In this document: piece by piece, positions 555 through 59,547 of the stretch
Layout of the letters: each line of letters begins with the position of its first letter
Position numbering within the stretch: the first letter of the stretch is position 1
DNA from: Flavitalea plasmicola
GTDB taxonomy: Bacteria > Bacteroidota > Bacteroidia > Chitinophagales > Chitinophagaceae
NCBI RefSeq assembly: GCF_030546645.1
Contig: NZ_JAUOTO010000001.1
Coordinates: 310,001 to 374,000 of the forward strand
DNA: 64,000 nucleotides
Reading direction: 5' to 3'
The notes under the pieces: generated by a model
Databases searched by the model: none
What the model saw: the letters and a program-made list of their open reading frames with translations, nothing else
Told to the model about the DNA's origin: nothing
Program-made: the position numbers and the translations under genes

Positions 555-3083
555 TTAACGTAATTGTGCTTGCATTTTTTTTACCCTGTCTTCCAGCTTT
601 TCCGAAGACATATCTTCCCGCATACTGTCTACTTTCAGCGGAAAACAGAAAGGTGTCAGCTTATCTGGCCATCGAAGGACAATTTGCCCTTTCTGGATCC
701 TTTCCAGCATATTCCGCAGACGTACTTCCTCCATCTGCTGGTCCATCACCTCATTGTAAGCCTGCCGGATCAGTAAATTGTCCGGATCATATTCAGTAAA
801 GACGTTGAAGAGCAGCGAGGCGGATGATTGCAGATGCCTTGGTTTTGCATACTCACCAGGATATCCCTGGAAGATAAGTCCCCCGATGACGGCAATGTCC
901 CGGAACTTCCGTCGTGCCATCTCCGCGCTGTTGACGCTGCGTTGTATGTCGGCCGTCAGGTCCACCGGACTGAACAGCTCATATACATTGGTGTCGTCGA
1001 CGGGAATGGGTTGATCGCTCAGCAGCTCGAAACCATAGTCGTTCATGGCAAAGGAAAAGCTAATGGGCGTCACCCGGCTGATGCGGTAAGCCAGCAATGC
1101 GGCCATGGCTTCGTGGACCAATCTGCCTTCGAAGGGATAGACGAAAAGATGGAAGCCATCCTTGGTCTCTATCTGCTCGATAAGCAATTCGTTCTCGCGG
1201 GGCATATAAGATAGTTCCGCCTGCAGCTGGAACAGCGGCAGCAAAACTTTCAACTCGATGTCCACCTCTTCCTGCTGGCTTGCAGCTTGCAGCTTGTGGC
1301 TTGTAGCTAAGAGCTCCGCGGCCTCGTCCAGCTTTTTGCGCAACATCATTCCCAGATTGGCTGACAAAGGCATCCGGCCGCCATTCCAGCTGGGAACGAT
1401 GGCTTTTTTCGCATTCGACTTGCGCACCAGCGCAGTCATATCCTTGATCATGACGAATTCAAGGTTCCTTCCCGCCAGGGTGAAAACATCTCCCGGCGAG
1501 AGCCGGGAGATAAAATATTCCTCGATGACGCCGACATATCCGCCGGTGATAAAGCGCACTTTGAGCATGGCGTCGCTGACGATGGTGCCGATGTGCAGGC
1601 GGTGCCGCATGGCGATGCGACGGCTATTGATCTTATAGACGCCATCCTCCATGATCTCTACTTTTTTGAACTCATCGTATTGGTGCAGGGCCGCCCCTCC
1701 TGCCGTAATGAAGTGTAGGATCTCACCCCATTCGTCCTCCGTCATATCGGCGTAGCAGTAGGTAGACTTCAGTTCCGTAAAAAGCGTGGCAGGATGGAAG
1801 CCTTCGGAGATCGCCAGGGTGGAGAGATATTGTATCAGCACATCGTAGCACAGCATCATAGGCTCACGGCTTTCGATAAGACCTATCTTCATGGCCGACT
1901 TCAGTGCCGCCGCCTCCATCAGTTCCAGGGAATGCGTAGGCAGAAAGAAGATCTTGCTCACCTCTCCCGGCTGATGCCCGCTGCGGCCTGCCCGCTGGAG
2001 AAACCTTGCGACCCCTTTCGGGCTGCCCACCTGGATGACCATCTCCACAGGCCGGAAGTCCACGCCCAGGTCCAGGCTGGCCGTCGTGACCACGGCCTTT
2101 AGCTTGCCTTCGTGCAGGGCTTCTTCCACCCAGTTGCGCAGGGCCATATCCACTGAGCCATGGTGCAGGGCGATGGCGCCCGCCAGGTCAGGACTGACGT
2201 CCAACAGCGATTGATACCATCTTTCGCTCATACCGCGGGTATTGATGAAGATCAACGTGGTCCGGCTCCGTTCCAGGATGGGGAGCACTTTGAGGATGAG
2301 CTTCAAACCAAGGTGGCCTGCCCAGGGATATTTCTCGATCTCGTCCGGGAGAATGGATTCCACCTGGATGTTCTTATGGATATTCGCCCGAACAATAAAA
2401 AAATCCCCGCTCGTAGCTCGCAGCTCGTAACTCGTAGCTCTAAGAGGTGCGAGGAGCACATCTCTCGCCTGCTCCAGGTTGCCGATGGTAGCGCTGATGC
2501 CGATGATGGAGCACGCCCCTTCTTTCACGCCGACGATACGGGAGACGGCCAGCTCCACCTGTACGCCCCTTTTGCTGCCCAACAGCTCGTGCCATTCGTC
2601 GACGGCGATGATCCTCAGCTGTTTGAAAACCTCATGATAGCCTTTTTGCGCCAACAGGAGATGGAGGCTCTCCGGCGTAATGATCAGCACCTCCGGCATT
2701 TTGCGTTTTTGCTTTTGCCGCTCGCTTATTTCCGTATCGCCATTGCGGATCCCTACTTTCCACTGCATGCCTAATTGACCAATCACCTCTTCCATGGCAC
2801 GGCCGATGTCCCTGGCAAGGGCACGGAGAGGAGAGATCCATAACAATTGAAGCCCGTTGTTGGCCTTGGTTTTAAAATCTCCGGGATGGCGGTTGATGAA
2901 GTCGATCAGCGCGCCCAGGAATACAGAGAAGGTCTTACCACAGCCTGTAGGCGCATTGACCAATCCCGACCTGCCTGCAATGACATGCGCCCAGGTCTCT
3001 TCCTGGAAGAGAAAAGGCCTGCGATCGTCCGATGACAGCCATTTTGAAATGGTTATATATCCCTGTGTTTCCTGTAATGTCAT
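555..3083 (-). CDS. Ligase-associated DEXH-box helicase (Lhr-like)
   Basis: An SF2 helicase of 842 residues from the ATG at 3083. That start is preferred over the ATG at 3110 because a GGAGGAGAT Shine-Dalgarno precedes it at good spacing. Visible motifs, in order: Walker A APTGCGKT (about 44-51), DEWH box (162-165), SATIG (197-201), then a second RecA domain with HHGS, a T-T-x-S-L-D-L-G-V-D motif V and QRAGRSGH motif VI, then a long Lhr-type C-terminal region. It is the helicase of the four-gene ligase-associated DNA damage response set and should act on nucleic acid in the cytoplasm. Two short segments (about residues 212-225 and 589-602) are translated heptanucleotide repeats and look like insertions. 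They read as L-R-A-T-S-Y-E-L-R-A-T-S and L-A-T-S-H-K-L-Q-A-A-S. Confidence 0.9.
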   Translation of the reverse strand: MTLQETQGYITISKWLSSDDRRPFLFQEETWAHVIAGRSGLVNAPTGCGKTFSVFLGALIDFINRHPGDFKTKANNGLQLLWISPLRALARDIGRAMEEVIGQLGMQWKVGIRNGDTEISERQKQKRKMPEVLIITPESLHLLLAQKGYHEVFKQLRIIAVDEWHELLGSKRGVQVELAVSRIVGVKEGACSIIGISATIGNLEQARDVLLAPLRATSYELRATSGDFFIVRANIHKNIQVESILPDEIEKYPWAGHLGLKLILKVLPILERSRTTLIFINTRGMSERWYQSLLDVSPDLAGAIALHHGSVDMALRNWVEEALHEGKLKAVVTTASLDLGVDFRPVEMVIQVGSPKGVARFLQRAGRSGHQPGEVSKIFFLPTHSLELMEAAALKSAMKIGLIESREPMMLCYDVLIQYLSTLAISEGFHPATLFTELKSTYCYADMTEDEWGEILHFITAGGAALHQYDEFKKVEIMEDGVYKINSRRIAMRHRLHIGTIVSDAMLKVRFITGGYVGVIEEYFISRLSPGDVFTLAGRNLEFVMIKDMTALVRKSNAKKAIVPSWNGGRMPLSANLGMMLRKKLDEAAELLATSHKLQAASQQEEVDIELKVLLPLFQLQAELSYMPRENELLIEQIETKDGFHLFVYPFEGRLVHEAMAALLAYRISRVTPISFSFAMNDYGFELLSDQPIPVDDTNVYELFSPVDLTADIQRSVNSAEMARRKFRDIAVIGGLIFQGYPGEYAKPRHLQSSASLLFNVFTEYDPDNLLIRQAYNEVMDQQMEEVRLRNMLERIQKGQIVLRWPDKLTPFCFPLKVDSMREDMSSEKLEDRVKKMQAQLR
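1277..1315. repeat. Heptanucleotide repeat, copy 1 (inside helicase gene)
   Basis: About five degenerate 7-base units of the AGCTTGC/AGCTTGT type. Read on the gene strand they encode the stretch around H-K-L-Q-A-A-S in the C-terminal half of the helicase, without a frameshift. Confidence 0.8.
2409..2446. repeat. Heptanucleotide repeat, copy 2 (inside helicase gene)
   Basis: About five 7-base units of the AGCTCGT/AGCTCGC subtype. On the gene strand they encode L-R-A-T-S-Y-E-L-R-A-T-S just after the SATIG motif region, between the two helicase domains. Confidence 0.8.
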
Positions 3084-3186
3084 ATTTTCATCTCCTCCGT
3101 TCATCCGCATGTAATAGCTTTTAATCCCACAGCATTAATGTTGTTTTAAGACCAGTATTAATTTTCGATTGAAAATAATCCCGGGG

Positions 3187-6158: not shown

Positions 6159-8045
6159 TCATTTCCCATGCAGTTCCAGCATCTTCTTCAGGTCTTCCAA
6201 AGTGTTAATTTCTTCCGGCTTTTTGTCCTTTCGCCAGCGATTGATACGGGGGAATCTTAATGCCACCCCGGACTTATGCCGGCCGGAGGCGGCGATGCCC
6301 TCAAAAGCTATTTCGAATACCAGTTCCGGACGGACGGTACGCACCGGGCCGAACTTTTCCAGGGAGTTGCGTTTTACGAATGCATCTACCTCTCCCAGCT
6401 CCTTGTCGGTGAGGCCGGAATAAGCTTTTGTGAAGGTGACCAGCTTGTCGCCGTCCTTTACGGCGAAAGTGTAGTCTGTATACAGATTGCTTCTGCGACC
6501 ATGGCCTTTCTGGGCGTAGACCATGACGGCGTCGATGACCAGGGGATCGATCTTCCATTTCCACCAGTCTCCCCGCTTGCGGCCCACCTGGTAAGGCGAG
6601 CCTTTTTTCTTGAGCATGACCCCTTCGCTGCCTTTGTCTCTCGCCTGCAGTCTTTGAGCGGCCAGCTCCTCCCAGGTATCATAGGATATGATGGGCGAGA
6701 GGTGCAATAAGGGTTGGTTGATAGCGCTTACGATCTTTTCCAGTTGCGTTCTTCTTTCTATTAGCGGTCGTTCCCGCCAGTCGACCCCTTCGTATTCCAG
6801 CAGGTCATAGGCGATGAAGCCCACCGGCGCTTCGGTCAGCTGCTTTTTTGTCACATTCTTTCGGCCTATGCGGGTCTGCAAGGCGGCAAACGGCAATACC
6901 TTAAAACCGCCCCCGCTCTTTTGTTGATCTCCCTCGCTTGTAGCTTGTAGCTTGGAGCTTGGAGCTTCGCTCGCGGCTCGCAGCTCATCGCTCACAGCTT
7001 CAGATCCCTCGCTCGCGGCTCGTAGCTCATCGCTCGCGGCTCGCAGCTCCCCACTCACGGCTCGCAGCTCACGGCTCACAGCTATCCCAATGATCTCCCC
7101 GTCCAGCACCGTTCCTTCCGGCAAGCCATGAGAGAAGGCCTGGTATTCCGGTAGCCTATCCGTGATCAGTTCCTCCCCGCGGCTCCATACGAACAGCTGT
7201 CCGCCACGTTTGATCAGTTCGCCCCGTATGCCGTCCCATTTCCATTCGGCCTGCCATTCTTCGGGATTGCCCAGTGCGGCAGGCTCATCTTCCAGCGCAT
7301 AGGCCAGGTAAAAGGGATAGGGGCGCGAAATATCGCTGCCGGTGCCTTCTTCGCTGAGCAGGCTGTCAAAGGAAATAGTGGAAGGGTCCCAGTTACCGCT
7401 GATCCGGTGTGCGATTACAGCAGCGGACGTTGCCGTCGTTTTCGCCAGTGCGTTGACGATCATCTTTTGGGAAACGCCGATCCGGAAGCCGCCCGTGATC
7501 AGCTTGTTGAAGACGAAGCGTTCGTCCCTGTTCATATGGGCCCAGCATTGGACGATAAAATCTTTTTTTATGATCTCTTCTTCTTTGCCGATCTCCGTCA
7601 GCCTTGCAAGGTAGTAGGCCAGGCTGCCGTCCCCTTTTGCGGCGCTGCGTTGCCCGATCTCGTTCATCCTGTCCTCTTCTGTTCGTTCTATAGTGGTGAG
7701 GGATTTCCACACCGGGTCCCCCTGGTCGGGCAACAGCAGGGCGATGGTCTCAGCCAGGTCGCCCACCGTGTGATAGCTTTCTTCATACAGCCAGGAGGGC
7801 AGACTAGTGATCTCCAGGCTCCAGACTGCCAGCTGAGTGGCGTTGACAGTTCGTTTGGGCCTCCGTCCGCTGAACAGGGCGACGACCCAGACTTTGTCTT
7901 TGTCGATGGATGCTTTGAAGTACTGGGTGAGGGCTTCCAGCTTATCGTTGGTTTTGGTGCTGGTGCCCAGCAATACGACCAGCTCGGCAAACAAGCCCAT
8001 GCCGCTGCTGCTTTCAGTAGCTATATAGTTGTCGATACCCGTCAT
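6159..8045 (-). CDS. ATP-dependent DNA ligase of the ligase-associated repair set
   Basis: A 628-residue ATP-dependent ligase with the adenylation motif E-W-K-W-D-G; Lys269 is the expected AMP-carrying lysine. Also visible are D-G-E-I (about 315-318), L-P-F-A-A-L-Q-T-R-I-G-R-K and the C-terminal E-G-V-M-L-K-K and K-W-K motifs V/VI. An N-terminal helical domain precedes the core. It seals nicks with ATP, probably in DNA damage repair with the neighbouring exonuclease, helicase and PdeM. The ATG at 8045 overlaps the exonuclease stop by 4 bases (ATGA), so translation is probably coupled. About 50 residues (321-370) after D-G-E-I-I-G are a translated heptanucleotide repeat that relatives, usually around 530 residues as I recall, would not be expected to have. 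Confidence 0.92.
   Translation of the reverse strand: MTGIDNYIATESSSGMGLFAELVVLLGTSTKTNDKLEALTQYFKASIDKDKVWVVALFSGRRPKRTVNATQLAVWSLEITSLPSWLYEESYHTVGDLAETIALLLPDQGDPVWKSLTTIERTEEDRMNEIGQRSAAKGDGSLAYYLARLTEIGKEEEIIKKDFIVQCWAHMNRDERFVFNKLITGGFRIGVSQKMIVNALAKTTATSAAVIAHRISGNWDPSTISFDSLLSEEGTGSDISRPYPFYLAYALEDEPAALGNPEEWQAEWKWDGIRGELIKRGGQLFVWSRGEELITDRLPEYQAFSHGLPEGTVLDGEIIGIAVSRELRAVSGELRAASDELRAASEGSEAVSDELRAASEAPSSKLQATSEGDQQKSGGGFKVLPFAALQTRIGRKNVTKKQLTEAPVGFIAYDLLEYEGVDWRERPLIERRTQLEKIVSAINQPLLHLSPIISYDTWEELAAQRLQARDKGSEGVMLKKKGSPYQVGRKRGDWWKWKIDPLVIDAVMVYAQKGHGRRSNLYTDYTFAVKDGDKLVTFTKAYSGLTDKELGEVDAFVKRNSLEKFGPVRTVRPELVFEIAFEGIAASGRHKSGVALRFPRINRWRKDKKPEEINTLEDLKKMLELHGK
6935..7084. repeat. 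Heptanucleotide repeat, copy 3 (long array inside ligase gene)
   Basis: About 150 bases of 7-base units, mostly of the AGCTCGC/AGCTCAT/AGCTTGT types. On the ligase strand they encode repeated D-E-L-R-A-A-S and S-S-K-L-Q-A-T-S peptides. It is the longest copy in the window, and it lies in the adenylation domain between motif III and the L-P-F-A-A-L-Q strand. Confidence 0.88.
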
Positions 8046-13563: not shown

Positions 13564-15948
13564 TCATAAATTTACATATCTCACCCTGATCCATATATTC
13601 CTGTTTCGCCCCTTGTCATCTGTACAGGAGATCTTCACCGGCCCTTCTTCGGGGACAAAGAATTGTTTGCTGCCCGCCTCGCCGGCTTTGTAGAATTTGT
13701 TGTTGATGTACCAGTAAACTTTCCCCACGTCATTGCTGACCCTGCATTTCAATTGTAGGGGTTCCGGGTCTTTCCGGTTGATCAGGTATTCGCTGCCGTT
13801 GGAAGGGCTGACCACCAGGGGTGCTCCGTCCCTGAATACCTTTTCGCAGTCGGGATTGTGCGGGGGGATGGACTGGTAAGCGATCCTTTTCTCTTCGAAA
13901 TATTCCTTCATCTCCGGGGTGATGATCTTAAAGAACTTTTTCTTATATCCATTCTCCGGCAGACAGCTCCGGCAGTAGGATATTTTTTCATCGGGTGATA
14001 GGAAGATCTCCTGCATATTGTCGCATTTCTTGGAAGTGGAGATCAGCGGGACGAAGTAATCCGTCACCAGGCTGGTGCAATGATCGGTGGGGGGCAGGCC
14101 TGTTTCAGCGCATACGGTGCGGACCTCGCAATCTTTGGGCCGGGAGAACCAGGGCTGGTCGTCGTCGTAATCAATCGTGTTGAAGACCTGGAACAGCAGG
14201 GGAGTGGCCGTATTTGCGCCGCTCAATTCCGGGACACCGGCGCCTGAAAAATTCCCCGCCCAGATGCCCACGGTGAACCGCTTGTTATAGCCGATGCTCC
14301 AGGCGTCGCGGCGGCCATAAGAGGTGCCCGTCTTCCAGGCGATCTTGGGCAGATGCATCGTGGTTTCCCATGTCAGGGGGAAATCCGGCCGGTTCACCTT
14401 CGAGAGCGTTTCATTAATCATAAACGTCGCCTCCGGACTTAATATCGTCCTGCTTGCAGGTTGCACCTTGTAGCTTGCAGCTTCCTCCCGGCTTGCAGCT
14501 TGTAGCTTGTAGCTTGTAGCTTCCCGAAGATATGCCGGAGCTGTGTACCTTCCCTCATTCGCAAAGATGGAATACAGGCCCGTCATCTCTTCCAGCGTGG
14601 CGCCGCATCCGCCCAGGATCATGGAAAGGCCCAGCTTTTTCTGATCTTTTTTTATCTGCTGGAAATCACAGCTGGCCAGCTTGCGGACCAACTTGTCCTT
14701 GCCGAGGGCTTTCAGGCTTTTTACGGCGGGAATGTTGAGCGAATGTTCCAGCGCATATTCCATGGTGACGTAGCCGTTGAATTTCCTGTCATAGTTCTCC
14801 GGGGCATATCCTTCGTAGTTCACCGCCACGTCGGTGATCACCATTTTGGGGGTGAGCAGACCCTCGTCGATACAAAGTCCGTATAATAAAGGTTTCAGGG
14901 TGCTGCCCGGTTGCCGGACGGCTGCAGCCCCGTTCACCTGGCCGCCGTCCGTCGTATCCCTGAAATCGGCTGAACCCACGTAGCTGATCACCCGGTGGGT
15001 GCTGTTATCCAGTACGATCACCGCCGCATTATGGATGTTCTTCAGGTTGAGGGTCCGGGAATAGTCCTTCACCAGCTTTTCGATCTTCCGCTGGGTATTG
15101 AGCTCGATCGTGGTGTGGAAGACTTCCGCACCGCCCTTTTTTTTCAGTTTCCAGGCCAGGTGAGGAATGAAATGCGGTATGGTGCCCCGGCTGGCAGTCA
15201 ATGGCTCATTCAGCGCATCGGCGATCTCTTTTTCCGTAAAGACCTTTTCCCGGGCCCAGCGTTTCAGCCACTTATTGCGCTCCTCCACGATCCTCCCATT
15301 GTTTTTTCCCATCACCAGCGAAGAAGGACGATTGGGAATAATGGAGAGGGCCGTGATCTCAGCCAGGGACAGGTGGTCGGGGTTCTTTTTAAAGTACAGG
15401 AAAGCGGCTGATTTCACCCCTTCGATGTTGCCGCCGTAAGGCACTTTGTTCAGGTACAGCTGCAGGATCTCGTCCTTGCTGTACTTCCATTCCAGCTGCA
15501 GGGCCCGGAACATTTCCCTGACCTTGTTCCAGTAGGTCCGCCGTTTGGGCTCCAGGCTACGCGCCACCTGCATGGTGATGGTGGAAGCGCCGGAGGTCCG
15601 CCGCATATGCAGGATATTCATAAAAAAGGCCCTGCTCATGGCCAGCAGGTTGATGCCCGGATGATAATAGAAGTACCTGTCCTCCTTTTCAACGATGGTC
15701 TTGCGCAGCAGCGGCGAGATTTCCTCCAATTCCGTCTTCATCCGCCATTGCTGGTCACGGGTGAGGAATGCATTGACCACTTCACCCTGGCTGTCCTCGA
15801 TGATGGTGGAATATTCGATGCGGTCGGGGACAGGAAAGATCCGGTTTAACACCAGGAAAAGCAGGAAAGCGCCAACCAGCCCGATGCCCAGTCTCACCAG
15901 CATCCGCCGCACCGACCAATTCCTGATATGACGAAGTATTCTTTTCAT
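13564..15948 (-). CDS. pbpC: Penicillin-binding protein 1C (bifunctional glycosyltransferase/transpeptidase)
   Basis: A 794-residue protein with an N-terminal membrane anchor (about 20-38). The glycosyltransferase family 51 domain has E-D-R-Y-F-Y-Y-H-P-G at 89-98 and G-A-S-T-I-T-M-Q. The transpeptidase domain has S-T-L-K (catalytic Ser in R-Q-P-G-S-T-L-K, about 350), H-S-L-N and K-T-G-T-S, and a PBP1C-type beta domain forms the C-terminus. It polymerises and crosslinks peptidoglycan in the periplasm. It is divergent from the alpha-2-macroglobulin gene, the classic pairing. Residues 475-499 (A-T-S-Y-K-L-Q-A-A-S and A-A-S-Y-K-V-Q-P-A-S) are a translated heptanucleotide repeat inserted between the S-x-N and K-T-G motifs. 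Confidence 0.94.
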   Translation of the reverse strand: MKRILRHIRNWSVRRMLVRLGIGLVGAFLLFLVLNRIFPVPDRIEYSTIIEDSQGEVVNAFLTRDQQWRMKTELEEISPLLRKTIVEKEDRYFYYHPGINLLAMSRAFFMNILHMRRTSGASTITMQVARSLEPKRRTYWNKVREMFRALQLEWKYSKDEILQLYLNKVPYGGNIEGVKSAAFLYFKKNPDHLSLAEITALSIIPNRPSSLVMGKNNGRIVEERNKWLKRWAREKVFTEKEIADALNEPLTASRGTIPHFIPHLAWKLKKKGGAEVFHTTIELNTQRKIEKLVKDYSRTLNLKNIHNAAVIVLDNSTHRVISYVGSADFRDTTDGGQVNGAAAVRQPGSTLKPLLYGLCIDEGLLTPKMVITDVAVNYEGYAPENYDRKFNGYVTMEYALEHSLNIPAVKSLKALGKDKLVRKLASCDFQQIKKDQKKLGLSMILGGCGATLEEMTGLYSIFANEGRYTAPAYLREATSYKLQAASREEAASYKVQPASRTILSPEATFMINETLSKVNRPDFPLTWETTMHLPKIAWKTGTSYGRRDAWSIGYNKRFTVGIWAGNFSGAGVPELSGANTATPLLFQVFNTIDYDDDQPWFSRPKDCEVRTVCAETGLPPTDHCTSLVTDYFVPLISTSKKCDNMQEIFLSPDEKISYCRSCLPENGYKKKFFKIITPEMKEYFEEKRIAYQSIPPHNPDCEKVFRDGAPLVVSPSNGSEYLINRKDPEPLQLKCRVSNDVGKVYWYINNKFYKAGEAGSKQFFVPEEGPVKISCTDDKGRNRNIWIRVRYVNL
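14451..14524. repeat. Heptanucleotide repeat, copy 4 (inside pbpC)
   Basis: Two blocks of AGCTTGT/AGCTTGC units separated by a few bases. On the gene strand they encode S-Y-K-L-Q-A-A-S and S-Y-K-V-Q-P-A-S within the transpeptidase domain, in frame. Confidence 0.85.
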
Positions 15949-25095: not shown

Positions 25096-25545
25096 ATGAA
25101 GCTTTTTGTAGCAGGTTTACCTTCTGATTTCGACGATGTTGATCTAAAAGAAATGTTTGAATTGTATGGTGTCGTTCACTCCGCTAAAGTTGTCATTGAC
25201 AGGGAGACCGGGAAAAGCAAAGGCTTCGGCTTCGTAGACATGGCTGACGATACGGAAGCCAAAGGGGCGATAGAGACCCTGGACGGCGCAGGCATCAGAG
25301 GCAAAAAGCTGGCCGTGAAAGAGGCGGATGAGCAAGGCAGAGGCGGCGGTGGCGGCGGCAACCGTGGCGGTGGTGGAGGATATGGCGGCGGCGGCGGACG
25401 CGGTGGTGGAGGATATGGTGGCGGCGGCAACCGTGGCGGCGGAGGTGGATACGGCGGCGGCGGCGGACGCGGCGGTGATCGTGGTGGAGACCGCGGCGGT
25501 GATCGCGGGGACCGCGGTGGCGGTGGTGGCGGAAGAAGATATTGA
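25096..25545 (+). CDS. RNA-binding protein: single RRM plus glycine-rich tail
   Basis: A 149-residue cytoplasmic protein from the ATG at 25096. Residues 2-7 (K-L-F-V-A-G, RNP2) and K-G-F-G-F-V (RNP1, about 42-47) define an RNA recognition motif of about 80 residues. The rest is Gly, Arg and Tyr in R-G-G-G-G and G-Y-G-G-G-G repeats. Single-RRM proteins of this type are common in Bacteroidota and cyanobacteria and bind single-stranded RNA; cold induction is known for some, but nothing here shows it. The tail is encoded by GGCGGT/GGCGGC-type repeats, which are prone to length change. Confidence 0.93.
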   Translation: MKLFVAGLPSDFDDVDLKEMFELYGVVHSAKVVIDRETGKSKGFGFVDMADDTEAKGAIETLDGAGIRGKKLAVKEADEQGRGGGGGGNRGGGGGYGGGGGRGGGGYGGGGNRGGGGGYGGGGGRGGDRGGDRGGDRGDRGGGGGGRRY

Positions 25546-33042: not shown

Positions 33043-33136
33043 AGCTACAGGCTGCAAGCTACTAGCCACAAGTCACTTATTTAAACTCTTTAAGCTCCTG
33101 GCTTGCAGCTTGAAGCTTGTAGCTTGTAGCTCAAAG
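33043..33136. repeat. Heptanucleotide repeat, copy 5 (intergenic, inverted pair, at the mnmA end)
   Basis: A left arm of AGCTACA/AGCTGCA-type units (33043-33075), about 25 unrelated bases, then a right arm of AGCTTGC/AGCTTGT units (33100-33136). The arms are partly complementary, so a long hairpin can form. The right arm contains the mnmA stop codon (TGA at 33133-33131). Confidence 0.85.
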
Positions 33137-34237
33137 CTGCCCCCCGCTGCGCTGTATGATGCCTCCCCCAATGACCTCGTCACCCTCATAAAAGACGGCA
33201 CTTTGTCCGGGGGCGATACCTTTCGCCTTATCGTAGAAGCGTATGTTCAGTTTGTCTCCTTCAGGGTAGAGATTGCTTAACGACCCCTTATCCTTATAGC
33301 GGATCTTTGTAATAGCCTCCATGCCCGGCGTTATGGAGTCGTATTTCATCAGGTTCAGCTTGCCCACGACCATTTCCTGTTCGTCAAGGTCGCCTTCATC
33401 TCCCAGGACGACCGTGTTGGTCTCCGGGCGGATGGCCGTCACATAGACTGGTTTCCCGAAGGTGATGTCCAGTCCTTTGCGCTGCCCCACTGTATAGAAA
33501 GGATAGCCTTTATGCTGTCCCAGGATCTTGCCATTCTTGTCCACGAAATTCCCGCCGGCCACCTGCTCTTCCAGGCCTTCTATCCGGCGCTTTAAAAATC
33601 CCCTGTAATCATTGTCGGGGACAAAGCAGATCTCATAGCTTTCGCTCTTGGCTGCCAGCTCCGGATAGCCATAGCTGAGGGCCATCTGCCGGATCTCCGT
33701 CTTGCGGTATGGCCCCAGTGGCAGGAGTGTTCTGCTCAGCAGGTCCTGCTGCAAGCCCCACAGCACATAACTTTGATCCTTTGTTTCATCCAACCCTTTG
33801 GCAATAGTATACCGGCCATTCTCATGACGGCGGATATTACCATAATGGCCCGTAGCGATGAACGCACAGTCCATGGCATCCGCCCGCTTGAGCAGCGCTC
33901 TCCATTTGATATGCGTGTTACAAAGCACGCAGGGATTGGGCGTTCTGCCGGCCATATATTCATCCACGAAATTGTTGATGACAAAGTCCCCGAACTCCTC
34001 ACGGATATCCAGCACGAAATGCGGGAACCCATGCTGTACAGCCGCCATCCGCGCATCGTTGAAGCTGTCCAGGTTGCAGCAGCCCGTCTCCTTTTTTGAA
34101 GCCCCCGCACTGGCATAATCCCATGTCTTCATCGTGATGCCCACCACTTCATATCCTTCATCGTGCAGCATGAGAGCCGTAACGGTACTGTCAATACCGC
34201 CACTCATTGCTACCAGGACCTTTCCTTTACGGCTCAT
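33131..34237 (-). CDS. mnmA: tRNA-specific 2-thiouridylase
   Basis: A cytoplasmic enzyme of 368 residues that puts sulfur on U34 of certain tRNAs. The ATP-binding loop A-M-S-G-G-I-D-S-T is at the N-terminus. The catalytic cysteines are in N-P-C-V-L-C-N and S-Y-E-I-C-F-V, and the K-D-Q-S-Y-V-L motif is present. The C-terminus ends in G-G-G-I-I-Q-R-S-G-G-Q-L, where the last two codons and the stop lie in a heptanucleotide repeat. The gene has its own promoter. Confidence 0.96.
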   Translation of the reverse strand: MSRKGKVLVAMSGGIDSTVTALMLHDEGYEVVGITMKTWDYASAGASKKETGCCNLDSFNDARMAAVQHGFPHFVLDIREEFGDFVINNFVDEYMAGRTPNPCVLCNTHIKWRALLKRADAMDCAFIATGHYGNIRRHENGRYTIAKGLDETKDQSYVLWGLQQDLLSRTLLPLGPYRKTEIRQMALSYGYPELAAKSESYEICFVPDNDYRGFLKRRIEGLEEQVAGGNFVDKNGKILGQHKGYPFYTVGQRKGLDITFGKPVYVTAIRPETNTVVLGDEGDLDEQEMVVGKLNLMKYDSITPGMEAITKIRYKDKGSLSNLYPEGDKLNIRFYDKAKGIAPGQSAVFYEGDEVIGGGIIQRSGGQL

Positions 34238-34256: not shown

Positions 34257-34287
34257 CAAAGTTACGAAAACAGCGACAAGGGGCAAG
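34257..34287 (-). promoter_or_regulatory. Promoter of mnmA, with -33 element in a repeat
   Basis: On the minus strand TAACTTTG (34264-34257) is a perfect -7 box and CTTG (34287-34284) lies 19 bases upstream. The CTTG is part of the heptanucleotide repeat that begins at this point. Confidence 0.6.
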
Positions 34288-34406
34288 CTGCAAGCTACAA
34301 GTAGTGCCTAATCAAACTCAACTTGCTCATAATTAATCGCTTGCAGCTTGTAGCTTGTAGCTTGCAGCTTGTAGCTCGAAGCTCACCGCTCACTGCTCGT
34401 AGCTCC
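34283..34406. repeat. Heptanucleotide repeat, copy 6 (intergenic, inverted pair)
   Basis: The left arm (34284-34302) has GCAAGCT/ACAAGCT units, then about 35 bases of AT-rich spacer. The right arm (34338-34406) has about ten AGCTTGT/AGCTTGC/AGCTCGA units. The left arm is the exact complement of part of the right arm. The right arm runs into the coding end of the next gene. Confidence 0.88.
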
Positions 34407-34866
34407 TAACCACTTCGATCTCCCCATCCCTTACAATGAGATCCTTCCATTCAGGGGCATTTTGAATATGCACTACGTAGGCCAAAGATCGGAATTGGGA
34501 AACTTCCTTTACCCATCCGATGGAAAAGTCATAGTAGGTGCTTTTCACCAGCCTTCTTACTTCTCCGGGCAATTCCTTTTCACTATACTCCCGCATGGTG
34601 TAAAGCCAGTTCCCATTTCTGTCAAACACCAGCTTGTTGTGGATCGTTCTTTCCTCGAATTCGGCAAGATAGCCCCCGGGCAGCATGTACCAGCGCTCTT
34701 CCTTGTTCTCTCCGGCCAGTTTCATGAATTGCCGGGCAGCCTTCACGCCGCCTTTATCATTTCGCAGCGTATGCAGGTTGAGGAAAGTATTGCTGGTGGC
34801 CTGCGCATCAGCGGGCATGTATCCTATCAGGAGCAGACAGGAAAGAATGATGATACTTCGTGTCAT
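34390..34866 (-). CDS. Small secreted protein of unknown function
   Basis: A 158-residue protein with a signal peptide ending near P-A-D-A-Q (about residue 22). The mature part has no family that I recognise; it has a basic middle (G-E-N-K-E-E-R-W-Y-M-L-P-G-G-Y-L-A-E-F) and alternating charged stretches that suggest a beta fold. Y-D-F-S-I-G-W-V-K-E-V is a pattern seen in beta-propeller-like or PepSY-like-domain proteins, but this is not enough for a call. The last residues, R-S-Y-E-Q, and the stop are encoded by a heptanucleotide repeat. Confidence 0.6.
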   Translation of the reverse strand: MTRSIIILSCLLLIGYMPADAQATSNTFLNLHTLRNDKGGVKAARQFMKLAGENKEERWYMLPGGYLAEFEERTIHNKLVFDRNGNWLYTMREYSEKELPGEVRRLVKSTYYDFSIGWVKEVSQFRSLAYVVHIQNAPEWKDLIVRDGEIEVVRSYEQ

Positions 34867-59450: not shown

Positions 59451-59547
59451 AAAGCTGCTAGCTGCAAGCCTCAAGCTACAAGTGAATGACCTGTAAGCAT
59501 TTAAAGAAATCCTTAGCTTGCAGCTTGCAGCTTGTGGCTTGAAACTA
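59451..59547. repeat. Heptanucleotide repeat, copy 7 (intergenic, inverted pair)
   Basis: The left arm (59452-59482) has AGCTGCA/AGCTACA-type units, then about 30 bases of AT-rich spacer. The right arm (59514-59545) has AGCTTGC/AGCTTGT units. The arms can pair in part. It lies between the divergent queA and TraB-family genes, upstream of the queA promoter. Confidence 0.85.

What the first reader, a model, noticed from the sequence alone, without database searches (positions are those of the whole stretch)
6935..7084. Heptanucleotide repeat family that is stop-free in all frames of one strand, with a long array inside the ligase
The units are 7 bases long (AGCTTGT, AGCTTGC, AGCTCGC and variants). 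Since 7 is not a multiple of 3, a run of them passes through all three frames, so any frame of one strand gives the same seven-residue peptide (S-Y-K-L-Q-A-T or D-E-L-R-A-A-S) with no stop. The other strand has TAG wherever the unit is AGCTTGT or AGCTCGT. Such a repeat can enter or grow in a coding region without breaking it, in one orientation only. In the ligase about 50 residues have been added after the D-G-E-I strand of the adenylation domain. This resembles the Rickettsia palindromic elements in effect and the heptanucleotide STRR repeats of cyanobacteria in form. I know of no description for this group.
Basis: partly seen in the sequence, partly recalled or inferred. Interest (0 to 1): 0.8.

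Follow-up and report, generated by a model that had tools for sequence, protein, structure and literature searches.

The report
Seven-base hairpin elements at stop codons
The seven-base repeats inside this DNA ligase belong to a family of hairpin-shaped DNA elements dispersed in this bacterium's genome, mostly seated at gene stop codons and sometimes, as single arms, inside proteins.

Summary
The array at 6936-7083 is real: heptads AGCTYGY and variants add about 51 residues to a variable loop of an ATP-dependent DNA ligase; no orthologue examined has it. That it is stop-free in every frame of one strand is wrong for this array: the two unused minus frames carry 4 and 3 stops, and one plus frame is open. 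The array belongs to a genome-wide family. In 1.57 Mb of the 8.73 Mb genome I found 111 arrays; 78 form 39 inverted pairs, 5'-(RCAAGCT)n-core-(AGCTTGY)n-3' (39 against 1 in reverse order), arms mostly about four heptads. The outer edge sits on a stop codon: 31 of 43 stop-side distances are -9 to +5 nt. Three orthologous junctions (sufB-sufC, sufS-sufE, pheT) lack it in relatives, so it was gained there. Genic copies are single arms, biased (13 of 18) but not limited to one orientation. The nearest described kind is the Xanthomonas GGGAATC heptameric repeat (four units, inverted pairs, near stop codons), linked there to G-quadruplexes; the heptads here have no G-tracts. No mobilising enzyme was identified. 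I rate it a new variant of a known kind.

The parts
6936..7083 (+). Heptad array (AGCTYGY strand is plus); encodes about 51 residues of the ligase on the minus strand
6159..8045 (-). ATP-dependent DNA ligase (NCBIfam TIGR04120, cisplatin damage response ligase), host of the array
555..3104 (-). Ligase-associated DEXH helicase (TIGR04121) with two further single arrays
1278..1316 (+). Single heptad array in helicase residues about 596-609, a variable linker
2409..2440 (+). Single heptad array in helicase residues about 221-232, a variable linker
14452..14522 (+). Single heptad array in penicillin-binding protein 1C gene (13564-15903 minus, TIGR02073)
33043..33138 (.). Inverted pair (dyad): arms 33043-33072 and 33088-33138, overlapping by 8 nt the 3' end of mnmA (33131-34237 minus)
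34272..34405 (.). Inverted pair: arms 34272-34301 and 34339-34405, overlapping by 16 nt the 3' end of the ORF at 34390-34818 minus (no NCBIfam match)
59452..59543 (.). Inverted pair between divergent called genes: arms 59452-59482 and 59514-59543

Best explanation
The ligase array is a stray arm of a multi-copy, hairpin-forming repetitive element. The usual form is about 80 nt: an arm of about four heptads (RCAAGCT)n, a core of 15-21 nt that is itself roughly palindromic (near CAGGNTTTAATAAGNCCT) or a longer one of 30-42 nt, and the inverted arm (AGCTTGY)n. SHOWN: architecture, copy number in the part read, seating on stop codons, and absence from three orthologous junctions in relatives, i.e. 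gain, with the protein end kept where I could compare it (SufB, PheT). INFERRED: it spreads as a non-autonomous mobile element whose insertion either targets the end of a coding region or survives almost only there; transcripts then carry a strong hairpin just after the stop codon, which could act in mRNA 3'-end protection or operon punctuation as proposed for REP elements, but does not look like a classical terminator. Single arms that land in genes, or lose their partner, grow by slippage and persist only where one frame stays open and the protein tolerates a longer loop, as in the ligase and helicase linkers.
For: 39 of 40 close opposed pairs are in one order, the odd one lying between two neighbouring dyads. 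All 37 dyads of at most 180 nt (of 39) were folded: mean -44 kcal/mol, 33 with z below -3. 40 of 43 stop-side distances lie -30 to +18 nt; 10 are exactly -2, of which 9 are TAG with its AG inside AGCT or AGCN and one TGA. 19 of 23 tandem-gene dyads overlap the upstream stop or start at most 3 nt past it, 3.7 expected if uniform in the spacer. Empty sites: sufB-sufC, sufS-sufE, where five relatives have overlapping genes and G018 a 5-nt spacer, pheT with C-terminus KELQAEIRK unchanged in G018 and G004; no array in 23 of 23 relatives' sufB loci, 26 of 26 sufS loci and 9 of 9 pheT loci, flanks included. Elsewhere in the family the arms keep the same order, 11 against 2, though 7 of the 11 are from one genome, G234. 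Variable loops.
Against: No mobilising enzyme found; I saw no target-site duplication at the junctions (by eye). Arms of one dyad are not more complementary to each other than to arms of other dyads (own 12.67, cross 13.47, permutation p 0.95), so neither recent hairpin copying nor selection on exact pairing shows. 33 of 111 arrays are unpaired, 4 of 39 dyads lie between divergent genes with no stop beside them and 2 fall in called genes. Only three junctions were tested; about 18% of the genome was read; gene calls come from my own simple caller.
Confidence: 0.7

Rival explanations
1. Plain simple-sequence repeats: heptads arise and expand by replication slippage at each site, and inverted pairs come from template switching across a small palindrome; nothing moves.
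For: Arms vary from 23 to 296 nt; period 7 dominates in other family members with quite different units (27 arrays of period 7, 10 of period 8, 2 each of periods 9 and 11, none of 4-6 and 10 in 80 loci). G018 has AGCTAG at its sufS stop, a possible seed.
Against: One unit and a recurring core over 111 arrays in one genome, while 17 of 20 other genus genomes have no strict match; a whole 75-nt dyad at the sufS-sufE junction, which is 0 or 5 nt in 6 of the 12 relatives printed (the other 6 have spacers of roughly 20-190 nt, without arrays).
Confidence: 0.18
2. Bidirectional transcription terminators made of heptads.
For: Hairpins at 3' ends, enriched between convergent genes (10 of 37 dyads; background 54 of 611 spacers of 60 nt or more).
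Against: No T-tract: 4.37 T in the 15 nt downstream against 4.35 in background, TTTT in 7 of 41 against 12% of 564; present between sufB and sufC and between sufS and a SufE-like gene.
Confidence: 0.1
3. Coding elements in the manner of Rickettsia palindromic elements, favoured because they add useful peptide segments in one orientation.
For: Genic arrays in ligase, helicase (two), PBP1C and others, 13 of 18 in the sense that reads ELRAASYKLQATS.
Against: 5 of 18 in the other orientation; most copies are outside genes; the 18 single genic arrays lack the palindrome; the ligase insert is predicted at low confidence (pLDDT 27-57) in a loop that varies freely in relatives.
Confidence: 0.05

Closest known systems
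Xanthomonas GGGAATC heptameric repeats (Rehm et al. 2015, PMC4692102; section 10 read, abstract and other sections in passages)
   Same: Heptamer units, four units most common, 70 and 75 inverted pairs in two genomes, strong bias to lie very near or overlapping the stop codon of the upstream gene, intragenic 7-11%
   Different: G-rich, and linked by the authors to G-quadruplexes; here AGCTYGY without G-tracts, another phylum. [quoted passage not shown]
REP/BIME elements with RAYT transposases (PMC3733652, passages read)
   Same: Many short palindromes outside genes, some inside replication and repair genes, hairpin RNA
   Different: REPs are 20-40 bp with GTAG or CGTC tags, not heptad arrays; Y1 transposases here are found alike in genomes with and without many arrays
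TAACTGA direct repeats of Beggiatoaceae, cyanobacteria and five Bacteroidetes (PMC4679880, passages and section 12 read)
   Same: Heptamer arrays, patchy distribution, mostly outside genes
   Different: In the main genome described, mostly just upstream of start codons and direct, not inverted
Nostoc tRNA-Leu intron P6b stem (PMC4476775, passages read)
   Same: A stem built of seven-base repeats on both sides
   Different: One intron stem, not a dispersed family
Borg tandem repeats (PMC9879509, passages read)
   Same: DNA repeats that create protein repeats, genome-specific
   Different: All repeats within ORFs there have units divisible by three

Membership tests
Xanthomonas-type heptameric repeats | Tandem heptamers, mostly about four units | tested here: met
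   46 of 78 dyad arms are 29-33 nt, 59 of 78 are 29-36 nt
Xanthomonas-type heptameric repeats | Inverted pairs near stop codons | tested here: met
Xanthomonas-type heptameric repeats | G-tracts able to form G-quadruplexes | tested here: not met
   Unit consensus AGCTYGY holds no run of three G (sequences)
REP with RAYT | High-copy, mostly extragenic palindrome | tested here: met
   39 dyads in 1.57 Mb, about 217 if extrapolated to the genome
REP with RAYT | Y1 transposase gene flanked by the repeat | tested here: not met
   2 Y1_Tnp hits in the genome, no array (score 12 or more) in the loci with about 1.5 kb flanks; Y1_Tnp found in 18 of 18 genomes, rich and poor in arrays
REP with RAYT | GTAG or CGTC tag at the foot of the hairpin | not tested
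   Not scored; dyad ends often overlap stop codons
Intrinsic terminator | T-tract after the hairpin | tested here: not met
Rickettsia palindromic element (definition recalled) | Palindrome inserted in frame in coding regions | tested here: not met
   The 18 single fully genic arrays have no opposed partner within 110 nt; 2 of 39 dyads fall in called genes, one across a gene end and one where I judge the start called too early
Cyanobacterial STRR (definition recalled) | Tandem heptanucleotide repeats dispersed in the genome | tested here: met
   taxon and units differ
Known Rfam families | Match at gathering score | tested here: not met
   0 matches in the window

The most novel reading that the evidence does not exclude
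Heptad-armed hairpins are a general class of bacterial mobile element that recognises the stop codon or translation end as its landing place, with arms written in a seven-base unit that differs by lineage (AGCTYGY here, GGGAATC in Xanthomonas, others in other Chitinophagaceae), made by an unknown enzyme that copies a seven-base template; G-quadruplexes are not the reason for the design.
Probability: 0.2. Interest if true: 0.85.

Novelty: new variant of a known kind. Interest (0 to 1): 0.62.

Why it matters
It joins scattered reports of bacterial heptamer repeats into one architecture (about four heptads, inverted, at the stop codon) found here without G-tracts, which counts against G-quadruplexes as the general reason for that design. 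It gives presence/absence junctions between suf genes, so both the insertion mechanism and the effect of a stop-codon hairpin can be tested, and it suggests a route by which intergenic repeats add segments to conserved repair proteins.

Tried and rejected
Expansion in 21-nt steps to keep frame: genic arrays of 60 nt or more are not more alike at lag 21 than at lag 7 (0.60 against 0.68, n 7; intergenic 0.74 and 0.73, n 13); only the ligase hints at 21/42. Hairpin covariation within dyads: none. RAYT as the driver: not supported. Terminator: not supported. AlphaFold of the ligase (20 rows): insert at low confidence and much of the C-terminal third too, so not used for structure claims; in two solved ligases, 3gde and 4eq5, 2 and 5 residues lie between the aligned stretches where query 323-381 or 323-383 sits. 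Pattern counts miss divergent units, so 0 in a genome does not prove absence; the pattern-free scan also has limits (1 array in 100 kb of G091, which has 65 strict matches genome-wide).

Rows not shown or dropped: the ligase alignment used 28 of the 80 loci; one search printed the sufB junction for 14 of 24 full-length loci, another the sufS junction for 13 of 27, 16 ligase rows of 18 loci, the window's own included. One search scanned all 24, all 27 and all 9 pheT loci for arrays: only the window's own genome had them. In one search the table was cut, so I did not trace the genome of every locus counted. One genic antisense array lies in a doubtful 64-aa ORF (my judgement).

Full report
WHAT WAS CHECKED. 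The window is G000:C11:310001-374000, part of an 8.73 Mb genome in 19 contigs. Its nearest records by ligase are Chitinophagaceae MAGs, among them one labelled Puia dinghuensis; I infer the family from that. The array at 6936-7083 is a run of seven-base units inside a 628-aa minus-strand ORF that NCBIfam calls the cisplatin damage response ATP-dependent DNA ligase, beside the ligase-associated exonuclease and helicase. It codes for about 51 residues with ELRAAS/ELRAVS/KLQATS repeats after VLDGEII.

CHANCE AND SCALE. A cyclic heptad score found 45 arrays at 16 or more in 800 kb, 1 in one dinucleotide-preserving shuffle. The strict 18-mer occurs 189 times in the genome, 72 on one strand and 117 on the other, reversed control 0. 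In 394 family genomes 44 have at least one match and few have many: G091 65, G234 47, G238 43, G281 31, G390 28, G051 20, G116 19; the reversed control matched in G191 (1), G230 (8) and G406 (1). Of 20 other genus genomes examined with this pattern, 3 have any (G017 3, G030 2, G004 1). A pattern-free scan found no period-7 array in 100 kb each of G018, G017 and G004, 80 kb of G024 and 18 kb of G009, against 19 in 200 kb of G000; G116 had 5, G091 1, G315 5 and G378 11 per 100 kb.

In 6936-7083 the minus frames have 4, 0 and 3 stops and the plus frames 2, 0 and 1. Units AGCTCAC and AGCTCAT carry TGA in the supposedly stop-free strand. Over 78 dyad arms stops per 100 nt are 5.84 in the AGCTTGY strand and 3.30 in the other: a bias, not a rule. 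Single fully genic arrays: 13 in the sense orientation, 5 in the other, p 0.096 two-sided; consistent with a filter for open frames (p 0.34).

ARCHITECTURE. In 1,568,161 bases read (C11 and C3 whole, 40 kb of C12) there are 111 arrays. 78 make 39 opposed pairs reading (RCAAGCT)n-core-(AGCTTGY)n; one pair has the reverse order and one within 110 nt is in tandem. The other 33 are single: 18 fully in genes, 15 not. Arms are mostly 29-36 nt (59 of 78), about four heptads. The 26 cores of 8-22 nt agree weakly on about AGnCAGGnTTTAATAAGnCCT. All 37 dyads of at most 180 nt were folded, 33 with z below -3. Arms of one dyad are not specially matched to each other.

SEATING ON STOP CODONS. Of 39 dyads 10 lie between convergent, 23 between tandem and 4 between divergent genes, and 2 in called genes. 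Of 43 distances to a flanking stop, 40 lie between -30 and +18 and 31 between -9 and +5; 10 are exactly -2, 9 of them TAG and one TGA sharing letters with the first heptad. Start-side distances are spread, -15 to 306. In tandem pairs 19 of 23 lie at or before +3 of the upstream stop, 3.7 expected for uniform placement. TAG is used in 19 of 41 dyad-flanked genes against 281 of 1183 genes (p 0.0025).

EMPTY SITES. SufB is 97% identical in G004 and G018 and is followed there by short spacers; here the dyad follows the stop directly and sufC follows it. At sufS-sufE (the second gene matches SufE below NCBIfam's cut-off), G004, G001, G028, G021 and G030 have overlapping stop and start (ATGA) and G018 a 5-nt spacer; the other six of twelve relatives printed have longer spacers; here a dyad separates the genes. 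At pheT the C-terminus KELQAEIRK is the same in G018 and G004, with TAG then a short spacer; here TAG runs into the dyad. A scan of all relatives' loci of these searches found no array in 23 sufB, 26 sufS and 9 pheT loci. So the dyad was gained at these three sites. At the sufB site some relatives carry other repeats: G031 has a different heptad-like run right after the stop (by eye).

GENIC COPIES. Between the stretches aligned to the ligase, two solved ligases have only 2 and 5 residues where the insert sits, and the linker is very variable in relatives (28 loci; 15 genus rows; the sets overlap). Two arrays in the helicase also sit where 9 orthologues vary. PBP1C has a further one. The model of the ligase gives no reliable structure for the insert.

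BEYOND THIS GENOME. brought loci from nine genomes with matches, seven of them in six other genera and two (G017, G004) in the same genus. In 21 distinct loci of these, opposed pairs have the same order 11 to 2; 7 of the 11 are from G234, which has a recurrent core near acctatagtt...cttacttcagt, unlike the core here. Other family members have period-7 arrays of quite different units, some inverted (L066, L058, by eye).

LITERATURE. Rehm et al. 2015 (PMC4692102; section 10 read, abstract and other sections in passages) describe in Xanthomonas the same plan with GGGAATC. Searches listed no paper that by its title or abstract start describes this family in Bacteroidota; lists were capped and subscription papers are not covered. 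MacGregor 2015 (PMC4679880, passages and section 12) describes TAACTGA repeats in five Bacteroidetes.

HOW IT MOST LIKELY WORKS. A non-autonomous hairpin element spread in this lineage; it lands at, or is kept almost only at, the end of coding regions. The enzyme is unknown: Y1 transposases are found in array-poor genomes as well. Effects on RNA are inferred; the lack of T-tracts and seats between suf genes speak against plain termination.

Noticed in passing
L305 (G031), just after the sufB stop; also L296 (G028), L298 (G017): Same junction carries a different heptad-like run (GTGAGTG/GTCAGTG) in G031 and other repeat- or palindrome-like sequence in G028 and G017 (by eye), as if this stop were a recurrent landing site.
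   Followed up: partly
L288-L292 (G378), L283-L287 (G315): One genome holds several unrelated heptad units (in G378 ATTGACC, AATTCCC, GGAACAA, CACGTCT), so period 7 rather than a given sequence is what recurs.
   Followed up: partly
L224, L233, L241, L249 (G234): Heptad arms flank a recurrent asymmetric core (acctatagtt...cttacttcagt, in L249 on the other strand), in some loci as repeated copies of the dyad.
   Followed up: partly
window 25348-25497: Tandem repeat rich in GGC/GGA (periods 33 and 69) by Tandem Repeats Finder, unrelated to the heptads.
   Followed up: no
L223 (G091:C1:14819-14899): Intergenic array with a 21-nt higher-order repeat of three different heptads.
   Followed up: no
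G230: The reversed control pattern matches 8 times in this genome, perhaps another heptad family.
   Followed up: no
G000 C11:1101107-1103650: An 847-aa called gene with two heptad arrays in the antisense orientation, the clearest exception to the one-orientation idea.
   Followed up: partly
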